DNA from: Sedimenticola sp. | GTDB lineage: Bacteria > Pseudomonadota > Gammaproteobacteria > Chromatiales > Chromatiaceae | Assembly: GCA_026992075.1 (NCBI GenBank) | Contig: JALXAM010000038.1 | Location: 81,303-145,302, forward strand | Direction of reading: 5' to 3' | DNA length: 64,000 nt | Shown here: piece by piece, positions 3,724-7,141 of the stretch | Numbering within the stretch: the first letter of the stretch is position 1 | Layout: every line of letters begins with the position of its first letter | Made by a program: the position numbers and the translations under genes | Notes under the pieces: model-generated | What the model was told of the DNA's origin: nothing | The model's input: only the letters and a program-made list of their open reading frames with translations | The model's database searches: none

Positions 3724-3737
3724 CTGATCCAGATCAA
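3724..3737 (+). promoter_or_regulatory. Candidate FNR/Anr binding site upstream of nrdD
   Basis: CTGATCCAGATCAA matches the FNR consensus TTGAT-N4-ATCAA at all but the first base. It is centred near 3730.5, about 84 bp before the nrdD ATG. Anaerobic activation of a class III reductase by FNR/Anr is well known in related bacteria; binding here is inferred from the match and its position. Confidence 0.65.
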
Positions 3738-3814: not shown

Positions 3815-5836
3815 ATGAAGCCCTCTACCCAAGTCACCACCCTCCCCAGCACCCTGCGCAAGCGCGACGGCAGCCTCGTCCCCTTCGACAGCCGCAAGAT
3901 CCACTCCGCCATCGCCCGCGCGGGACGGGCCACCGGCGAGTTCGGCGAGGACGAGGCGGGCCTGCTCACCGCCCAGGTGGTGAAGGTGCTGAGCCACCTG
4001 CCGGGCGTGCCCGAGGTGGAGCGCATCCAGGACATCGTGGAGCAGACCCTCATCTCGGCCAACCACTTCCGCACCGCCCGCGCCTACATCGTCTACCGTG
4101 AACAGCACGAGCGGCTGCGCCAGGACCGCCAGACCCTGGTGGACGTGGCCGCCTCGGTGAACGAGTACCTCGACCGCAGCGACTGGCGGGTGTCGGCCAA
4201 CGCCAACCAGGGCTACTCGCTGGGCGGCCTCATCCTCAACACCTCGGGCAAGGTGATCGCCAACTACTGGCTGAGCCACGTCTACCCGCCCGAGATCGGC
4301 CGCGCCCACCGCGAGGCCGACTTCCACATCCACGACCTGGACATGCTCTCGGGCTATTGCGCCGGCTGGTCGCTGCGCACCCTGCTCCACGAGGGGCTCA
4401 ACGGCGTGCCGGGCAAGGTGGAGGCGGGACCGCCGAAACACATGTCCTCGGCGGTGGGCCAGATCGTCAACTTCCTCGGCACCCTGCAGAACGAATGGGC
4501 CGGCGCCCAGGCCTTCAGCTCCTTCGACACCTACATGGCCCCCTTCGTGCGCAAGGACCGACTGGACTACCCCCAGGTGCGCCAGTACATCCAGGAGCTG
4601 ATCTACAACCTCAACGTCCCCTCCCGCTGGGGCACCCAGACCCCCTTCACCAACCTCACCTTCGACTGGGTCTGCCCCGAGGATCTGCGCGACCAGGTGC
4701 CGGTGATCGGCGGCGAGGAGATGCCCTTCACCTACGGCGAGCTGCAGCACGAGATGGACCTTATCAACCGCGCCTACATCGAGGTGATGAGCGCCGGCGA
4801 CGCGAAGGGACGGGTCTTCACCTTCCCCATCCCCACCTACAACATCACGCCCGACTTCCCCTGGGAGAGCGAGAACGCCGAGCTCCTGTTCGAGATGACC
4901 GCCAAGTACGGCCTTCCCTACTTCCAGAACTTCCTCAACTCGGAGCTCAAGCCCAACATGGTGCGCTCCATGTGCTGCCGCCTGCAGCTCGACCTGCGCG
5001 AGCTGCTCAAGCGGGGCAACGGCCTCTTCGGCTCGGCGGAACAGACCGGCTCCCTGGGCGTGGTGACCCTCAACTGCGCCCGCCTCGGCTACCTGCACCG
5101 GGGCGACGAGCAGGGGCTCTACGCCCGCCTGGACGAGCTGCTGGAGCTGGCCCGCAACAGCCTGGAGATCAAGCGCAAGGTGATCCAGCGCCACATGGAT
5201 GCCGGCCTCTTCCCCTACACCAAACGTTACCTCGGCACCCTGCGCAACCACTTCTCCACCATCGGCGTCAACGGCATCAACGAGATGATCCGCAACTTCA
5301 CCAGCGACGCCCACGACATCACCGACGAGTGGGGCCACGACTTCGCCTGCCGCCTCCTCGACCACATCCGGGCGCGGATGGTGGCCTTCCAGGAGGCCAC
5401 CGGCAACCTCTACAACCTGGAGGCCACACCGGCGGAAGGCACCACCTACCGATTCGCCAAGGAGGACCGCAAGCGCTGGCCCGACATCCTCCAGGCCGGC
5501 ACGCCCGAGAAGCCCTACTACACCAACAGCTCCCAGCTCCCGGTGGGCTACACCGACGACCCCTTCGAGGCGCTGGCGATGCAGGAGGAACTCCAGTCGA
5601 AGTACACCGGCGGCACCGTGCTCCACCTCTACATGAGCGAACGCCTCTCCTCCGCCGACGCCTGCCGGCGGCTGGTGAGGCGGGCGCTGGAGAACTTCCG
5701 CCTCCCCTACATCACCGTCACCCCCACCTTCTCCATCTGCCCGAAACACGGCTACCTGGAGGGGGAGCACGAGTTCTGCCCCAAGTGCGACCAGGAACTC
5801 ATCGCCCGGAAGAAGGCTGCCCATGCCACCGCCTGA
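3815..5836 (+). CDS. nrdD: Anaerobic (class III) ribonucleoside-triphosphate reductase, large part lacking the glycyl-radical C-terminus
   Basis: Catalytic subunit that reduces ribonucleoside triphosphates to deoxynucleotides without oxygen. The 673 residues begin with an ATP-cone (KRDGSLVPFDSRKIHSAIA, about 10-100), the allosteric activity domain, followed by the ten-stranded barrel. Cys387/Cys388 in SMCCRLQ are candidates for the thiyl-radical cysteine. The protein ends just after a zinc-type cluster, Cys642-x2-His645 and Cys655-x2-Cys658 (FSICPKHG, FCPKC), with a basic tail. The RVxGYxRP glycyl-radical segment that normally follows this cluster is absent; it is encoded separately at 6262. 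The upstream region carries FNR and NrdR sites. Identification is firm; the split is the oddity. Confidence 0.95.
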   Translation: MKPSTQVTTLPSTLRKRDGSLVPFDSRKIHSAIARAGRATGEFGEDEAGLLTAQVVKVLSHLPGVPEVERIQDIVEQTLISANHFRTARAYIVYREQHERLRQDRQTLVDVAASVNEYLDRSDWRVSANANQGYSLGGLILNTSGKVIANYWLSHVYPPEIGRAHREADFHIHDLDMLSGYCAGWSLRTLLHEGLNGVPGKVEAGPPKHMSSAVGQIVNFLGTLQNEWAGAQAFSSFDTYMAPFVRKDRLDYPQVRQYIQELIYNLNVPSRWGTQTPFTNLTFDWVCPEDLRDQVPVIGGEEMPFTYGELQHEMDLINRAYIEVMSAGDAKGRVFTFPIPTYNITPDFPWESENAELLFEMTAKYGLPYFQNFLNSELKPNMVRSMCCRLQLDLRELLKRGNGLFGSAEQTGSLGVVTLNCARLGYLHRGDEQGLYARLDELLELARNSLEIKRKVIQRHMDAGLFPYTKRYLGTLRNHFSTIGVNGINEMIRNFTSDAHDITDEWGHDFACRLLDHIRARMVAFQEATGNLYNLEATPAEGTTYRFAKEDRKRWPDILQAGTPEKPYYTNSSQLPVGYTDDPFEALAMQEELQSKYTGGTVLHLYMSERLSSADACRRLVRRALENFRLPYITVTPTFSICPKHGYLEGEHEFCPKCDQELIARKKAAHATA

Positions 5837-5890
5837 TACCCCTTTCGTAGGTCGGGCTTCAGCCCGACAGAACAACCTGTTGCGCCGGAA

Positions 5891-5998
5891 GGCCGCTGGC
5901 CGACCCTTGGTGGCGGGGTTTCGGCAGCAGGGATGCTGCCGCAAAGCCTACAGGGAGGTATTCACGGCGTCCCCGCCACCAAGGGTCGGCCAGCGGCC
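5891..5998. repeat. Type B element, copy B1: 52-nt core in perfect 28-bp inverted arms
   Basis: The arms 5891-5918 and 5971-5998 are perfect reverse complements. The core 5919-5970 contains the hairpin GGCAGC-AGGGAT-GCTGCC (5923-5940) and the conserved string CTACAGGGAGGTATTCACGG. The arm sequence is not found in the other copies. Confidence 0.85.
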
Positions 5999-6066
5999 CT
6001 CGCGAAAGCATTGGAATCATCATGCCTGGTTGCCGGGCTTTGGCCGGGCAACTGAAACGCTTTCGG

Positions 6067-6174
6067 GGCCGGCGGAGGGGAGCTTGTAGCGGGAACGCCG
6101 TGAATACATCCCTGTAGGCTCCGCCTCGGCATCCCTGCCTCGGAGGTCCCGCTACAAGCCCCCCTCCGCCGGCC
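6067..6174. repeat. Type B element, copy B2, opposite orientation
   Basis: The arms 6067-6094 and 6147-6174 are 28 bp each with one mismatch. The core 6095-6146 is again 52 nt; read on the minus strand it carries CTACAGGGATGTATTCACGG and a GGC-AGGGAT-GCC hairpin. The arms are unrelated to those of B1 only 70 bp away. Confidence 0.85.
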
Positions 6175-6261
6175 TACAGGCACTGTTGGTTGTTCTGTCG
6201 GACGGAAGACCAGCCTACATACGACGAGTTAAACCCATCGATCCAACAACGGAGGAACCCG

Positions 6262-6420
6262 ATGCAACAACAAACCATCACGCTCAAAGACGAAGAACGC
6301 ACCCGCTGCGAGATCTGGACCCGGGTGATGGGCTACCACCGCCCTGTCACCTCCTTCAACCCCGGCAAGCAGTCGGAATACCGCGAACGGCAGGTATTCG
6401 TGGAATCCAAGACTCGTTGA
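6262..6420 (+). CDS. Separate glycyl-radical domain of anaerobic ribonucleotide reductase (52 aa)
   Basis: A 52-residue protein whose central part is what ends an ordinary NrdD: WTRVMGYHRPV (residues 19-29) followed by FNPGKQSEYRER (32-43). This matches the family pattern RVxGYxRPV...NxGKxxEfxxR, so Gly24 is the expected glycyl-radical residue. It has its own ATG with a strong ribosome site GGAGGA 7 nt upstream, so it is built as an independent gene. It lies 425 bp after nrdD and 97 bp before nrdG, the activase that would make the radical. I infer that it docks into the NrdD barrel in trans, as YfiD does for pyruvate formate-lyase. Whether relatives have the same split I cannot check. Confidence 0.85.
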   Translation: MQQQTITLKDEERTRCEIWTRVMGYHRPVTSFNPGKQSEYRERQVFVESKTR

Positions 6421-6421
6421 C

Positions 6422-6502
6422 GTAGGAGCGCCGTCCCCGGCGCGAACCCGGAACGCGGTACCCGGTGCCGTTGTCCGTTCGGCGCGGGGACGCGCCTCCT
6501 AC
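6422..6502. repeat. Type E palindromic repeat between the glycyl-radical gene and nrdG
   Basis: GTAGGAGCGCCGTCCCCGGC at 6422 is matched in reverse complement by GGCGCGGGGACGCGCCTCCT just before 6502, with a few mismatches, around a GC-rich loop. It fills almost the whole gap and is followed at once by ACAGGGATTC. It resembles the widespread GTAGGAGCGG-type REP units of gammaproteobacteria. Confidence 0.75.
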
Positions 6503-6517
6503 AGGGATTCCTTCACC

Positions 6518-7141
6518 ATGCGCATCGGCGGCTTCGTTCCCTTCACCTCAATCGATTACCCCGGCGAGCTGGCGGCGGTGGTCTTCTGCCAGGGGTGTCC
6601 CTGGCGCTGCGGCTACTGCCACAACCCCCACCTGCTGCCGGCCCGTGGCAGCGAGCTGCTCGACTGGCGGGCGCTGCTCAAGATACTGGAGCAGCGGCGC
6701 GGACTGCTGGACGCCGTGGTCTTCAGCGGCGGCGAGCCCACCCTGCAGGGCAGCTTGCCGGAGGCGATGCGGCAAGTGAAGGCGCTGGGCTTCAAGGTGG
6801 GCCTCCACACCGCCGGCTGCTACCCCCGCCGCCTGGAACGGCTGCTGCCGCTGGTGGACTGGGTGGGACTGGACATCAAGGATCTGCCGCCCCACTACCC
6901 GGCCCTCACCGGCGTTCCCGGCAGCGGCGAGCGCGCCTGGAAGGGCCTGGAGCTGGTGTGTGCCAGCGGGATTCCTTTCGAGGTGCGCACCACCCTGGGG
7001 CCCCACCTGCCCGAAGAGCGGCTGTCGCAAATCGAAACGGTGTTGAAGGAAAAGCGGGTTCCCCGTCACCGCCTGCAGCCGCTCAACCCGCTGCCAGCAA
7101 CTGGCGAAGGGCCGCCTCCAGGTGGGGGTAAGCAAAGGTGA
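6518..7141 (+). CDS. nrdG: Anaerobic ribonucleotide reductase activase (radical SAM)
   Basis: Radical SAM enzyme that uses an iron-sulfur cluster and S-adenosylmethionine to install the glycyl radical. The 207 residues show the CX3CX2C cluster motif Cys27-Cys31-Cys34 in QGCPWRCGYCHNPH and the SAM-binding FSGGEPTLQ at about 71. The N-terminus MRIGGFVPFTSIDYPGELA is typical of the Pseudomonas-type NrdG. Its last 19 codons overlap the convergent epimerase gene, and the tail (PPPGGGKQR) looks unlike a natural NrdG end, so the 3' end may have been altered when the genes came together. It belongs with nrdD and the 52-aa radical domain. Confidence 0.93.
   Translation: MRIGGFVPFTSIDYPGELAAVVFCQGCPWRCGYCHNPHLLPARGSELLDWRALLKILEQRRGLLDAVVFSGGEPTLQGSLPEAMRQVKALGFKVGLHTAGCYPRRLERLLPLVDWVGLDIKDLPPHYPALTGVPGSGERAWKGLELVCASGIPFEVRTTLGPHLPEERLSQIETVLKEKRVPRHRLQPLNPLPATGEGPPPGGGKQR

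What the first reader, a model, noticed from the sequence alone, without database searches (positions are those of the whole stretch)
3815..7141. Class III ribonucleotide reductase with its glycyl-radical domain on a separate 52-aa gene
Seen: the 673-aa NrdD ends right after its CxxH...CxxC cluster and lacks RVxGYxRP. A 52-codon gene 425 bp downstream, with its own GGAGGA site, carries WTRVMGYHRPV and FNPGKQSEYRER, the missing segment with candidate Gly24. The activase nrdG follows. Known: in standard NrdD the glycyl loop is the C-terminus of the same chain; YfiD shows that a glycyl-radical domain can work in trans for pyruvate formate-lyase. Inference: this is a three-component anaerobic reductase (NrdD core, radical peptide, NrdG). 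The gap is filled with repeats, so repeat insertion may have split an ancestral gene. I have a vague memory of short NrdD-like entries beside nrdD in other gammaproteobacteria, so the split may be wider than this genome.
Basis: partly seen in the sequence, partly recalled or inferred. Interest (0 to 1): 0.75.

Follow-up and report, generated by a model that had tools for sequence, protein, structure and literature searches.

The report
Anaerobic ribonucleotide reductase with detachable radical
This bacterium's gene for the predicted oxygen-free enzyme that makes DNA building blocks is split into a large body and a separate 52-residue peptide that has the glycine which would hold the enzyme's radical; the same split occurs in many other bacteria, Pseudomonas aeruginosa among them, and predicted phages carry lone copies of the peptide that likely plug into their hosts' enzyme.

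Summary
NrdD (3815-5836, 673 aa) has the ATP-cone, barrel and CxxH...CxxC cluster but stops before the glycyl-radical loop. A 52-aa gene (6262-6420) encodes that loop (RVMGYHRP, Gly24), and nrdG2 follows. No other nrdD was found in the genome.

It is neither decay nor a local accident. Of 39 NrdD-positive genomes in a class draw, 30 are split and 7 fused; a phylum draw is mostly fused (46 of 66). P. aeruginosa and Cupriavidus necator H16 have the split. Most relatives have short gaps or overlaps, in all three frames, so repeats did not cause it. In two genomes core and small gene are unlinked. The glycine is invariant and the small gene is under purifying selection. A distant NrdD lineage shows the same split independently.

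Beyond the finding: 109 IMG/VR viral contigs encode the small protein, and 107 show no NrdD core in the DNA held. Of 50 records searched whole, 48 hold only this peptide. The five contexts examined contain phage genes.

Best reading: a three-component class III reductase with a likely exchangeable radical cartridge, which phages appear to supply too. Docking, radical formation and exchange are untested. I found no description in the papers searched.

The parts
3724..3737 (+). FNR/Anr/Dnr-like box CTGATCCAGATCAA, 91 bp upstream of the NrdD start (predicted regulator site)
   Evidence: One mismatch to TTGATN4ATCAA. A box with at most 1 mismatch lies within 300 bp upstream of 37 of 106 nrdD genes against 1.2% in base shuffles
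3815..5836 (+). NrdD core, 673 aa: ATP-cone, NRDD barrel, SMCCR (Cys387/388), CPKH...CPKC (642-658); no glycyl-radical loop
   Evidence: Pfam PF03477 and PF13597 2-529/562; NF006126 1155 bits; conserved Cys/His
5837..6261 (.). 425-nt spacer rich in repeats
   Evidence: 158 of 425 bases in 16-mers recurring in the window; gap an outlier among relatives
6251..6256 (+). GGAGGA, likely ribosome-binding site, 5 nt before the ATG
   Evidence: read directly from the sequence
6262..6420 (+). Separate glycyl-radical protein, 52 aa, Gly24 in RVMGYHRP
   Evidence: PF13597 532-562, 32.4 bits; glycine in 153 of 153 bacterial and 120 of 120 viral matches; median dN/dS 0.20
6518..7141 (+). nrdG2, radical-SAM activase, 207 aa
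   Evidence: TIGR02495 210 bits, PF04055

Best explanation
The window encodes a class III ribonucleotide reductase split over three neighbouring genes: a 673-aa NrdD core without a glycyl-radical loop, a 52-aa protein that has the missing loop with Gly24, and the activase NrdG2; the small protein likely docks into the core's barrel and holds the catalytic glycyl radical in trans. Predicted cycle: NrdG2 takes an H atom from Gly24 of the docked small protein, the glycyl radical makes a thiyl radical on the core (probably in SMCCR, Cys387/388), and a ribonucleotide is reduced. Because oxygen cuts a glycyl radical at its glycine, damage would hit the 52-aa cartridge and spare the 673-aa core, which a fresh copy could recharge. 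Phages that carry lone copies would supply such cartridges to the host enzyme. Shown: gene separation, conservation, selection, unlinked copies and lone copies in predicted viral contigs. Inferred: docking, radical, exchange and the phage role.
For: Core lacks the loop, the small ORF has it. No other nrdD in the genome. Core plus separate small gene in 102 of 111 loci, in all three relative frames, with nrdG next (several loci are one genome twice). Class draw: 30 split, 7 fused, 2 unclassifiable of 39. Pseudomonadaceae: no uninterrupted full-length NrdD seen among 74 positives of 198 genomes. P. aeruginosa NrdD P0134 (675 aa) ends without the loop and a 48-aa protein P0245 has it. G640: core about 8.4 kb from small+nrdG on one contig. 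RUG11852: core and small on different contigs. Gly 153 of 153 bacterial, 120 of 120 viral. dN/dS medians 0.20 and 0.24. An independent split in a distant NrdD lineage, G623 and G691. Function where the split exists: C. necator H16 nrdDG needed for complete denitrification, PAO1 NrdDG complements. Viral lone copies: 48 of 50 records.
Against: No biochemistry: no EPR, no complex, no activity. The genetics seen in papers did not test the small gene on its own. Fused NrdD is the majority in the phylum draw (46 of 66), and two fused relatives, Acidiphilium and Actinomyces, sit inside the split clade, so being split is not required for function; one clade of all split rows was not rejected (p 0.093). 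The structure model was too poor to use (mean pLDDT 56.8), and the small protein has no PDB match. RUG11852 is a MAG, so binning error is possible. No viral record searched is rated 90% complete, and no cultured phage in INPHARED matched.
Confidence: 0.87

Rival explanations
1. One chain is still made: a frameshift or stop read-through joins core and small ORF.
For: 26 of 111 loci have the two ORFs in the same frame, separated by stops.
Against: 54 loci are in frame +1 and 22 in +2. Same-frame cases have TGA, TAG or TAA, sometimes several. Distances reach 425-600 nt, and in two genomes the genes are unlinked. The small ORF here has its own likely ribosome-binding site.
Confidence: 0.02
2. The locus is decayed: a truncated nrdD with a leftover 3' fragment.
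For: The 425-nt gap is rich in repeats. Bradyrhizobium and Thiothrix plasmid loci L114 and L113 do show a core that matches only in two pieces.
Against: Same anatomy in most sampled relatives that have NrdD, purifying selection, invariant glycine, and activity in organisms with the split.
Confidence: 0.02
3. The small protein is only a repair part, as YfiD is for pyruvate formate-lyase, and the core keeps another radical site.
For: YfiD works in trans on cleaved enzyme, and its authors suggest spare parts for other glycyl radical enzymes (PMC8683613 passages). Lone phage copies resemble T4 Y06I in arrangement.
Against: No glycyl motif anywhere in the window's core; in 142 split cores scanned whole a loose pattern occurs 6 times and never as RVxGY. 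The small protein is the only candidate radical site.
Confidence: 0.05
4. Core and small protein are joined after translation by protein splicing.
For: An intein-like insert with a LAGLIDADG domain does occur in one of these cores (L184).
Against: That insert lies in the middle of the core; the small protein matches only PF13597, and 44-52 aa leave no room for an intein half.
Confidence: 0.01

Closest known systems
Canonical class III ribonucleotide reductase NrdD (T. maritima, P. copri, T4, E. coli)
   Same: NRDD barrel, ATP-cone (in many), Cys motif, Zn cluster, glycyl loop sequence and NrdG activase; nearest solved chains 8p23, 4u3e, 4coi.
   Different: There the Gly loop is the C-terminus of the same chain; here it is a separate small protein (52 aa here, 48-55 in the Pseudomonas ones read).
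YfiD/GrcA and T4 Y06I, spare parts of pyruvate formate-lyase
   Same: A small protein supplies a glycyl-radical domain in trans; a phage copy exists (PMC8683613 passages).
   Different: YfiD replaces a loop that the enzyme also has; here the bacterial enzyme has no loop of its own. The Pfam family is NRDD PF13597.
Split class II RNR NrdJa+NrdJb of P. aeruginosa
   Same: An RNR C-terminal domain encoded as a separate gene (PMC5704485 passages).
   Different: NrdJb has the cysteine-rich domain for re-reduction, not the radical; class II uses B12.
Split nrdD/nrdA genes of phages (introns, inteins, homing endonucleases)
   Same: RNR genes cut in pieces (PMC3653736 passages).
   Different: Those breaks are sporadic and often tied to mobile elements; this break is at one fixed place and widespread.

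Membership tests
Class III ribonucleotide reductase NrdD | NRDD barrel domain | tested here: met
   PF13597 587 bits; TIGR02487 466 bits, over its cut-off
Class III ribonucleotide reductase NrdD | Catalytic cysteines (SCCR-type motif) | tested here: met
   SMCCR Cys387/388 and Cys182 in 105 of 105 split cores aligned; role of SCCR from PMC4493059 passages
Class III ribonucleotide reductase NrdD | C-terminal Zn cluster | tested here: met
   Cys642, His645, Cys655, Cys658 in 105 of 105; metal itself not tested
Class III ribonucleotide reductase NrdD | Glycyl-radical loop in the same chain | tested here: not met
   Motif absent from the core, present in the separate 52-aa ORF
Class III ribonucleotide reductase NrdD | Radical-SAM activase NrdG | tested here: met
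   TIGR02495 NrdG2 downstream
Class III ribonucleotide reductase NrdD | Glycyl radical and anaerobic activity | not testable with these tools
   needs EPR and an assay
YfiD/GrcA spare-part proteins | Stand-alone small protein with glycyl-radical motif | tested here: met
   52 aa with RVMGY
YfiD/GrcA spare-part proteins | Homology to the pyruvate formate-lyase C-terminus | tested here: not met
   only PF13597 NRDD matches at E 0.001
YfiD/GrcA spare-part proteins | Partner enzyme also has its own loop | tested here: not met
   core has none

The most novel reading that the evidence does not exclude
In much of the Proteobacteria the anaerobic ribonucleotide reductase is a cartridge enzyme: its radical sits on a disposable peptide of about 50 residues that can be swapped after oxygen damage, an arrangement that evolved at least twice. 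Phages exploit this by carrying the cartridge alone, so that 150 bases recharge the host's whole anaerobic dNTP factory during infection.
Probability: 0.55. Interest if true: 0.88.

Novelty: new variant of a known kind. Interest (0 to 1): 0.8.

Why it matters
Class III reductase is taught as NrdD plus NrdG. If the radical sits on a third, separable protein in P. aeruginosa, Stutzerimonas, Cupriavidus, Thiobacillus and others, purified NrdD plus NrdG from them should be inactive, knock-outs need reinterpretation, and the small gene is an overlooked essential part for anaerobic growth. It also gives a natural system in which glycyl-radical docking, activation and oxygen repair can be studied with a peptide short enough to synthesise. 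The lone copies in predicted phages suggest that they support host anaerobic dNTP synthesis with one tiny gene; the best PHROGs match is a family of unknown function (phrog_4132).

Tried and rejected
Structure: the AlphaFold2 model of the core (13 rows, 74-91% identical to the window) had mean pLDDT 56.8 and pTM 0.46, so no fold search was run and no docking claim rests on it. Solved structures: the small protein has no sequence match in the PDB at E 1.

Phage collection INPHARED: no tblastn match for the window's small protein or the viral one of L287, so the phage claim rests on IMG/VR contigs and two bacterial genomes.

Repeat insertion as cause of the split: rejected. Oxygen lifestyle as driver of the split: considered, not tested, because facultative E. 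coli has the fused form (recalled). Re-fusion in Acidiphilium and Actinomyces: favoured by the tree (0% of 200 bootstrap trees hold all split rows as one side) but not significant (AU p 0.093).

A first count of the invariant glycine was circular because the pattern demanded G; it was redone with X at that position. The open_frame figure of the genome search is the same for core and small gene in same-frame cases and says nothing about stops between; I checked that on the DNA. That check moved G623 and G691, first counted as fused, to an independent split. Vogesella (L033, L310) and one Thiobacillus (L041, L311) looked unlinked, but the contigs break right there, so they are not used.

Siedow 1999 on the H16 enzyme is not held; it may have noted the split. 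Paper searches.
Full report
OBSERVATION. The finding is real. The NrdD ORF 3815-5836 (673 aa) has an ATP-cone and matches Pfam NRDD only up to position 529 of 562. It ends shortly after CPKHGYLEGEHEFCPKC. The 52-aa ORF 6262-6420 matches positions 532-562 of the same family (32.4 bits, cut-off 26.2), with Gly24 in RVMGYHRP and GGAGGA 5 nt before its ATG. nrdG2 follows at 6518-7141. The own genome gave these two NRDD pieces and no other.

HOW WIDE. A protein search with the 52-aa sequence found 756 homologues (120 listed, 51-91 aa), and one with a Pseudomonas version found 3377 (120 listed). Of 111 loci (80 named contigs, the rest; some are the same genome twice, and L001/L002 are the window itself), 102 have core and small gene as separate ORFs, one is fused (L095) and 8 lack one part, mostly at contig or locus ends. 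The small gene lies in frame +1 (54), +2 (22) or the same frame after a stop (26). The distance from the core's stop to the first aligned residue of the small protein is mostly between -23 and about 130 nt, with outliers of 175, 246, 320, 339, 425 (the window) and 600 nt. Of 112 core frames read, only the two fused ones (L095, L115) have the motif in the last 160 residues; at least four others are cut by contig or locus ends. Scanned whole, the window's core has no such motif, and 142 split cores have a loose version 6 times, never RVxGY.

SURVEYS. In an even draw of 370 Gammaproteobacteria-class genomes (the window's class) 39 have an NRDD match: from the rows I class 30 as split, 7 as fused and 2 as unclassifiable (G183 weak, G237 a fragment). 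A draw of 397 from the phylum gives the opposite balance: of 66 matches 17 are split in the window's way (G564 among them, with two TAA between the parts), 2 are split in another lineage, 46 are fused and one is weak (G664); many of the fused come from a few families. The draws overlap. In Pseudomonadaceae 74 of 198 have NrdD: 66 show core and small as separate matches, 7 show one match that reads through one or more stops, one is a fragment. Of the 66, 14 are in the same frame as the core; in all 14 (13 fetched, G524 as L174) a stop lies between, and the same holds for the 3 of the 7 that I fetched. Plasmid records with the small protein include C. necator H16 pHG1, C. metallidurans, Paracoccus and Sulfuricurvum (split); Acidiphilium, Actinomyces and Geoalkalibacter are fused.

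A SECOND SPLIT. In G623 and G691 (one genus) a distant NrdD, 21% identical to the window's core, also stops after its Cys cluster; a separate downstream ORF of about 70 aa has RRITGY, and a radical-SAM ORF that looks like NrdG follows in another frame (by eye). This looks like the same solution reached independently.

WELL-STUDIED ORGANISMS. The P. aeruginosa NrdD (P0134, 675 aa, 1277 member sequences) ends ...CPKCDEELLQRSTPKSCCGGCGG without the loop, and a 48-aa protein with RVMGYHRP, named by NCBI from P. aeruginosa, exists (P0245). I did not see the P. aeruginosa DNA; its relative G524 has the small gene directly after the core. The papers seen treat the enzyme as NrdDG: PMC5645315 (passages and section 13) complemented PAO1 mutants with a PCR fragment of 'the complete nrdDG genes', which would include a gene lying between them; PMC12284477 (passages) lists NrdD as 76 kDa. 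In C. necator H16 the genes lie on pHG1 as core, 66-aa small gene and activase, and PMC2864759 (passages) reports nrdDG as essential for complete denitrification there, citing Siedow 1999, which I could not read. So the split form works in cells, although these sources did not test the small gene alone.

TWO SEPARATE GENES, ACTING IN TRANS. In G640 the core lies about 8.4 kb from a small-gene/nrdG pair on the same strand and contig, with many ORFs between. In the rumen MAG RUG11852 the core sits between lysS-like and rpoA/rplQ-like ORFs on one contig, and the small gene near an hrcA-like ORF on another, with no nrdG match in the 7.6 kb held (ORF names by eye; binning error possible). These arrangements exclude frameshifting or read-through as the general solution.

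SELECTION AND MOTIF. With a query masked at the glycine, all 153 bacterial matches (fused relatives and repeated genomes included) and all 120 viral loci (109 contigs) have glycine there. Nei-Gojobori dN/dS over 34 codons has median 0.20 for bacterial small genes (3695 of 8515 pairs usable) and 0.24 for viral ones (490 of 3570); pairs are not independent and synonymous sites are near saturation. In 105 aligned split cores Cys182, Cys387, Cys388, Cys642, His645, Cys655 and Cys658 are invariant. SMCCR is probably the SCCR motif whose cysteines are needed in T. maritima NrdD (PMC4493059 passages). An FNR-like box with at most one mismatch lies upstream of 37 of 106 nrdD genes (1.2% expected in base shuffles), including the window.

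ORIGIN. A careful tree of 53 rows separates the split clade from fused NrdDs with 100/100 support; fused Acidiphilium and Actinomyces fall inside it, but a tree with all split rows together is not rejected (p 0.093). One old split with two re-fusions is the simplest story for this lineage, not proven. The window's repeats look like a later local addition.

PHAGES. Two scans of IMG/VR gave 120 loci on 109 distinct contigs (the first kept its best 80 of 140). In the DNA held, a core is found in two (L214, L307) and nrdG in none (tblastn with the window's nrdG, so distant activases may be missed); 39 contigs have at least 5 kb on each side, 38 of them without a core. I searched 50 of the 109 records whole: 48 hold only the terminal piece, 2 also a core. 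None of them is rated 90% complete or more. PHROGs places the lone gene among tail-fibre and virion genes (L287), between endolysin and integrase with tail genes and a reverse transcriptase (L204), between DNA polymerase and clamp loader near thymidylate synthase (L281), after a tape-measure gene (L208) and after a portal gene (L238). These were five loci chosen from the 109. The six small proteins tested, the window's included, match phrog_4132, unknown function. Two host links: genome G271 has a complete split system and a second lone small gene (L177) beside ORFs that look like SSB, RecT and class II RNR (by eye); L214 is a stretch of the Parasutterella muris genome (all 31-mers of L312 shared), which also has its own split system. 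In the surveys every genome with a small piece also has a core.

MECHANISM. Inferred: the small protein docks where the C-terminal loop of canonical NrdD enters the barrel, NrdG2 activates Gly24, and the radical moves to the core cysteine. Oxygen would destroy the 52-aa part only. By analogy with YfiD (PMC8683613 passages; its authors suggest spare parts may exist for other glycyl radical enzymes) a new copy would restore the enzyme. Here the arrangement is obligatory for the bacterium and, in phages, looks like a supply of cartridges.

NOVELTY. NCBI and JGI already name many of the small proteins 'anaerobic ribonucleoside-triphosphate reductase', 'oxidoreductase' or 'hypothetical protein', so the homology is in databases. 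I found no paper on a bacterial NrdD whose glycyl loop is a separate gene, or on NrdD cartridges in phages, in searches (open-licence PMC only; listings, and passages of the papers named).

Noticed in passing
L189-L308 (IMG/VR contigs): Lone glycyl-radical peptides in predicted phage contigs, mostly without NrdD or NrdG: candidate phage-supplied cartridges for host class III reductase.
   Followed up: yes
L328, L329, L168 (genomes G623, G691): Independent split in a distant NrdD lineage: core stops after its Cys cluster, a separate ORF of about 70 aa has RRITGY, and an NrdG-like ORF follows.
   Followed up: partly
L177 3803-3991 (-), genome G271: Second, lone small gene in a genome that has a complete split NrdD, beside ORFs that look like SSB, RecT and class II reductase; prophage-like.
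   Followed up: partly
L214 / L312, Parasutterella muris: A region classed as viral carries a second core (with an insert) plus small gene but no nrdG match in the DNA held, in a host with its own split system.
   Followed up: partly
L184 921-3899; also L185, L186: Large in-frame insert in split NrdD cores near PF13597 position 157; L184 matches LAGLIDADG_3 and looks like an intein (ends by eye).
   Followed up: partly
L308 10001-10177: Viral small gene with an in-frame TGA where the family has Gly; the virus or host may read TGA as glycine.
   Followed up: no
L113 (Thiothrix) and L114 (Bradyrhizobium) plasmids: Small gene and nrdG are annotated while the core matches only in two pieces; these plasmid copies may be broken.
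   Followed up: no
window 6421-6517: An inverted repeat (GTAGGAGCG...CGCCTCCTAC by eye) between the small gene and nrdG, possibly a REP-like element.
   Followed up: no
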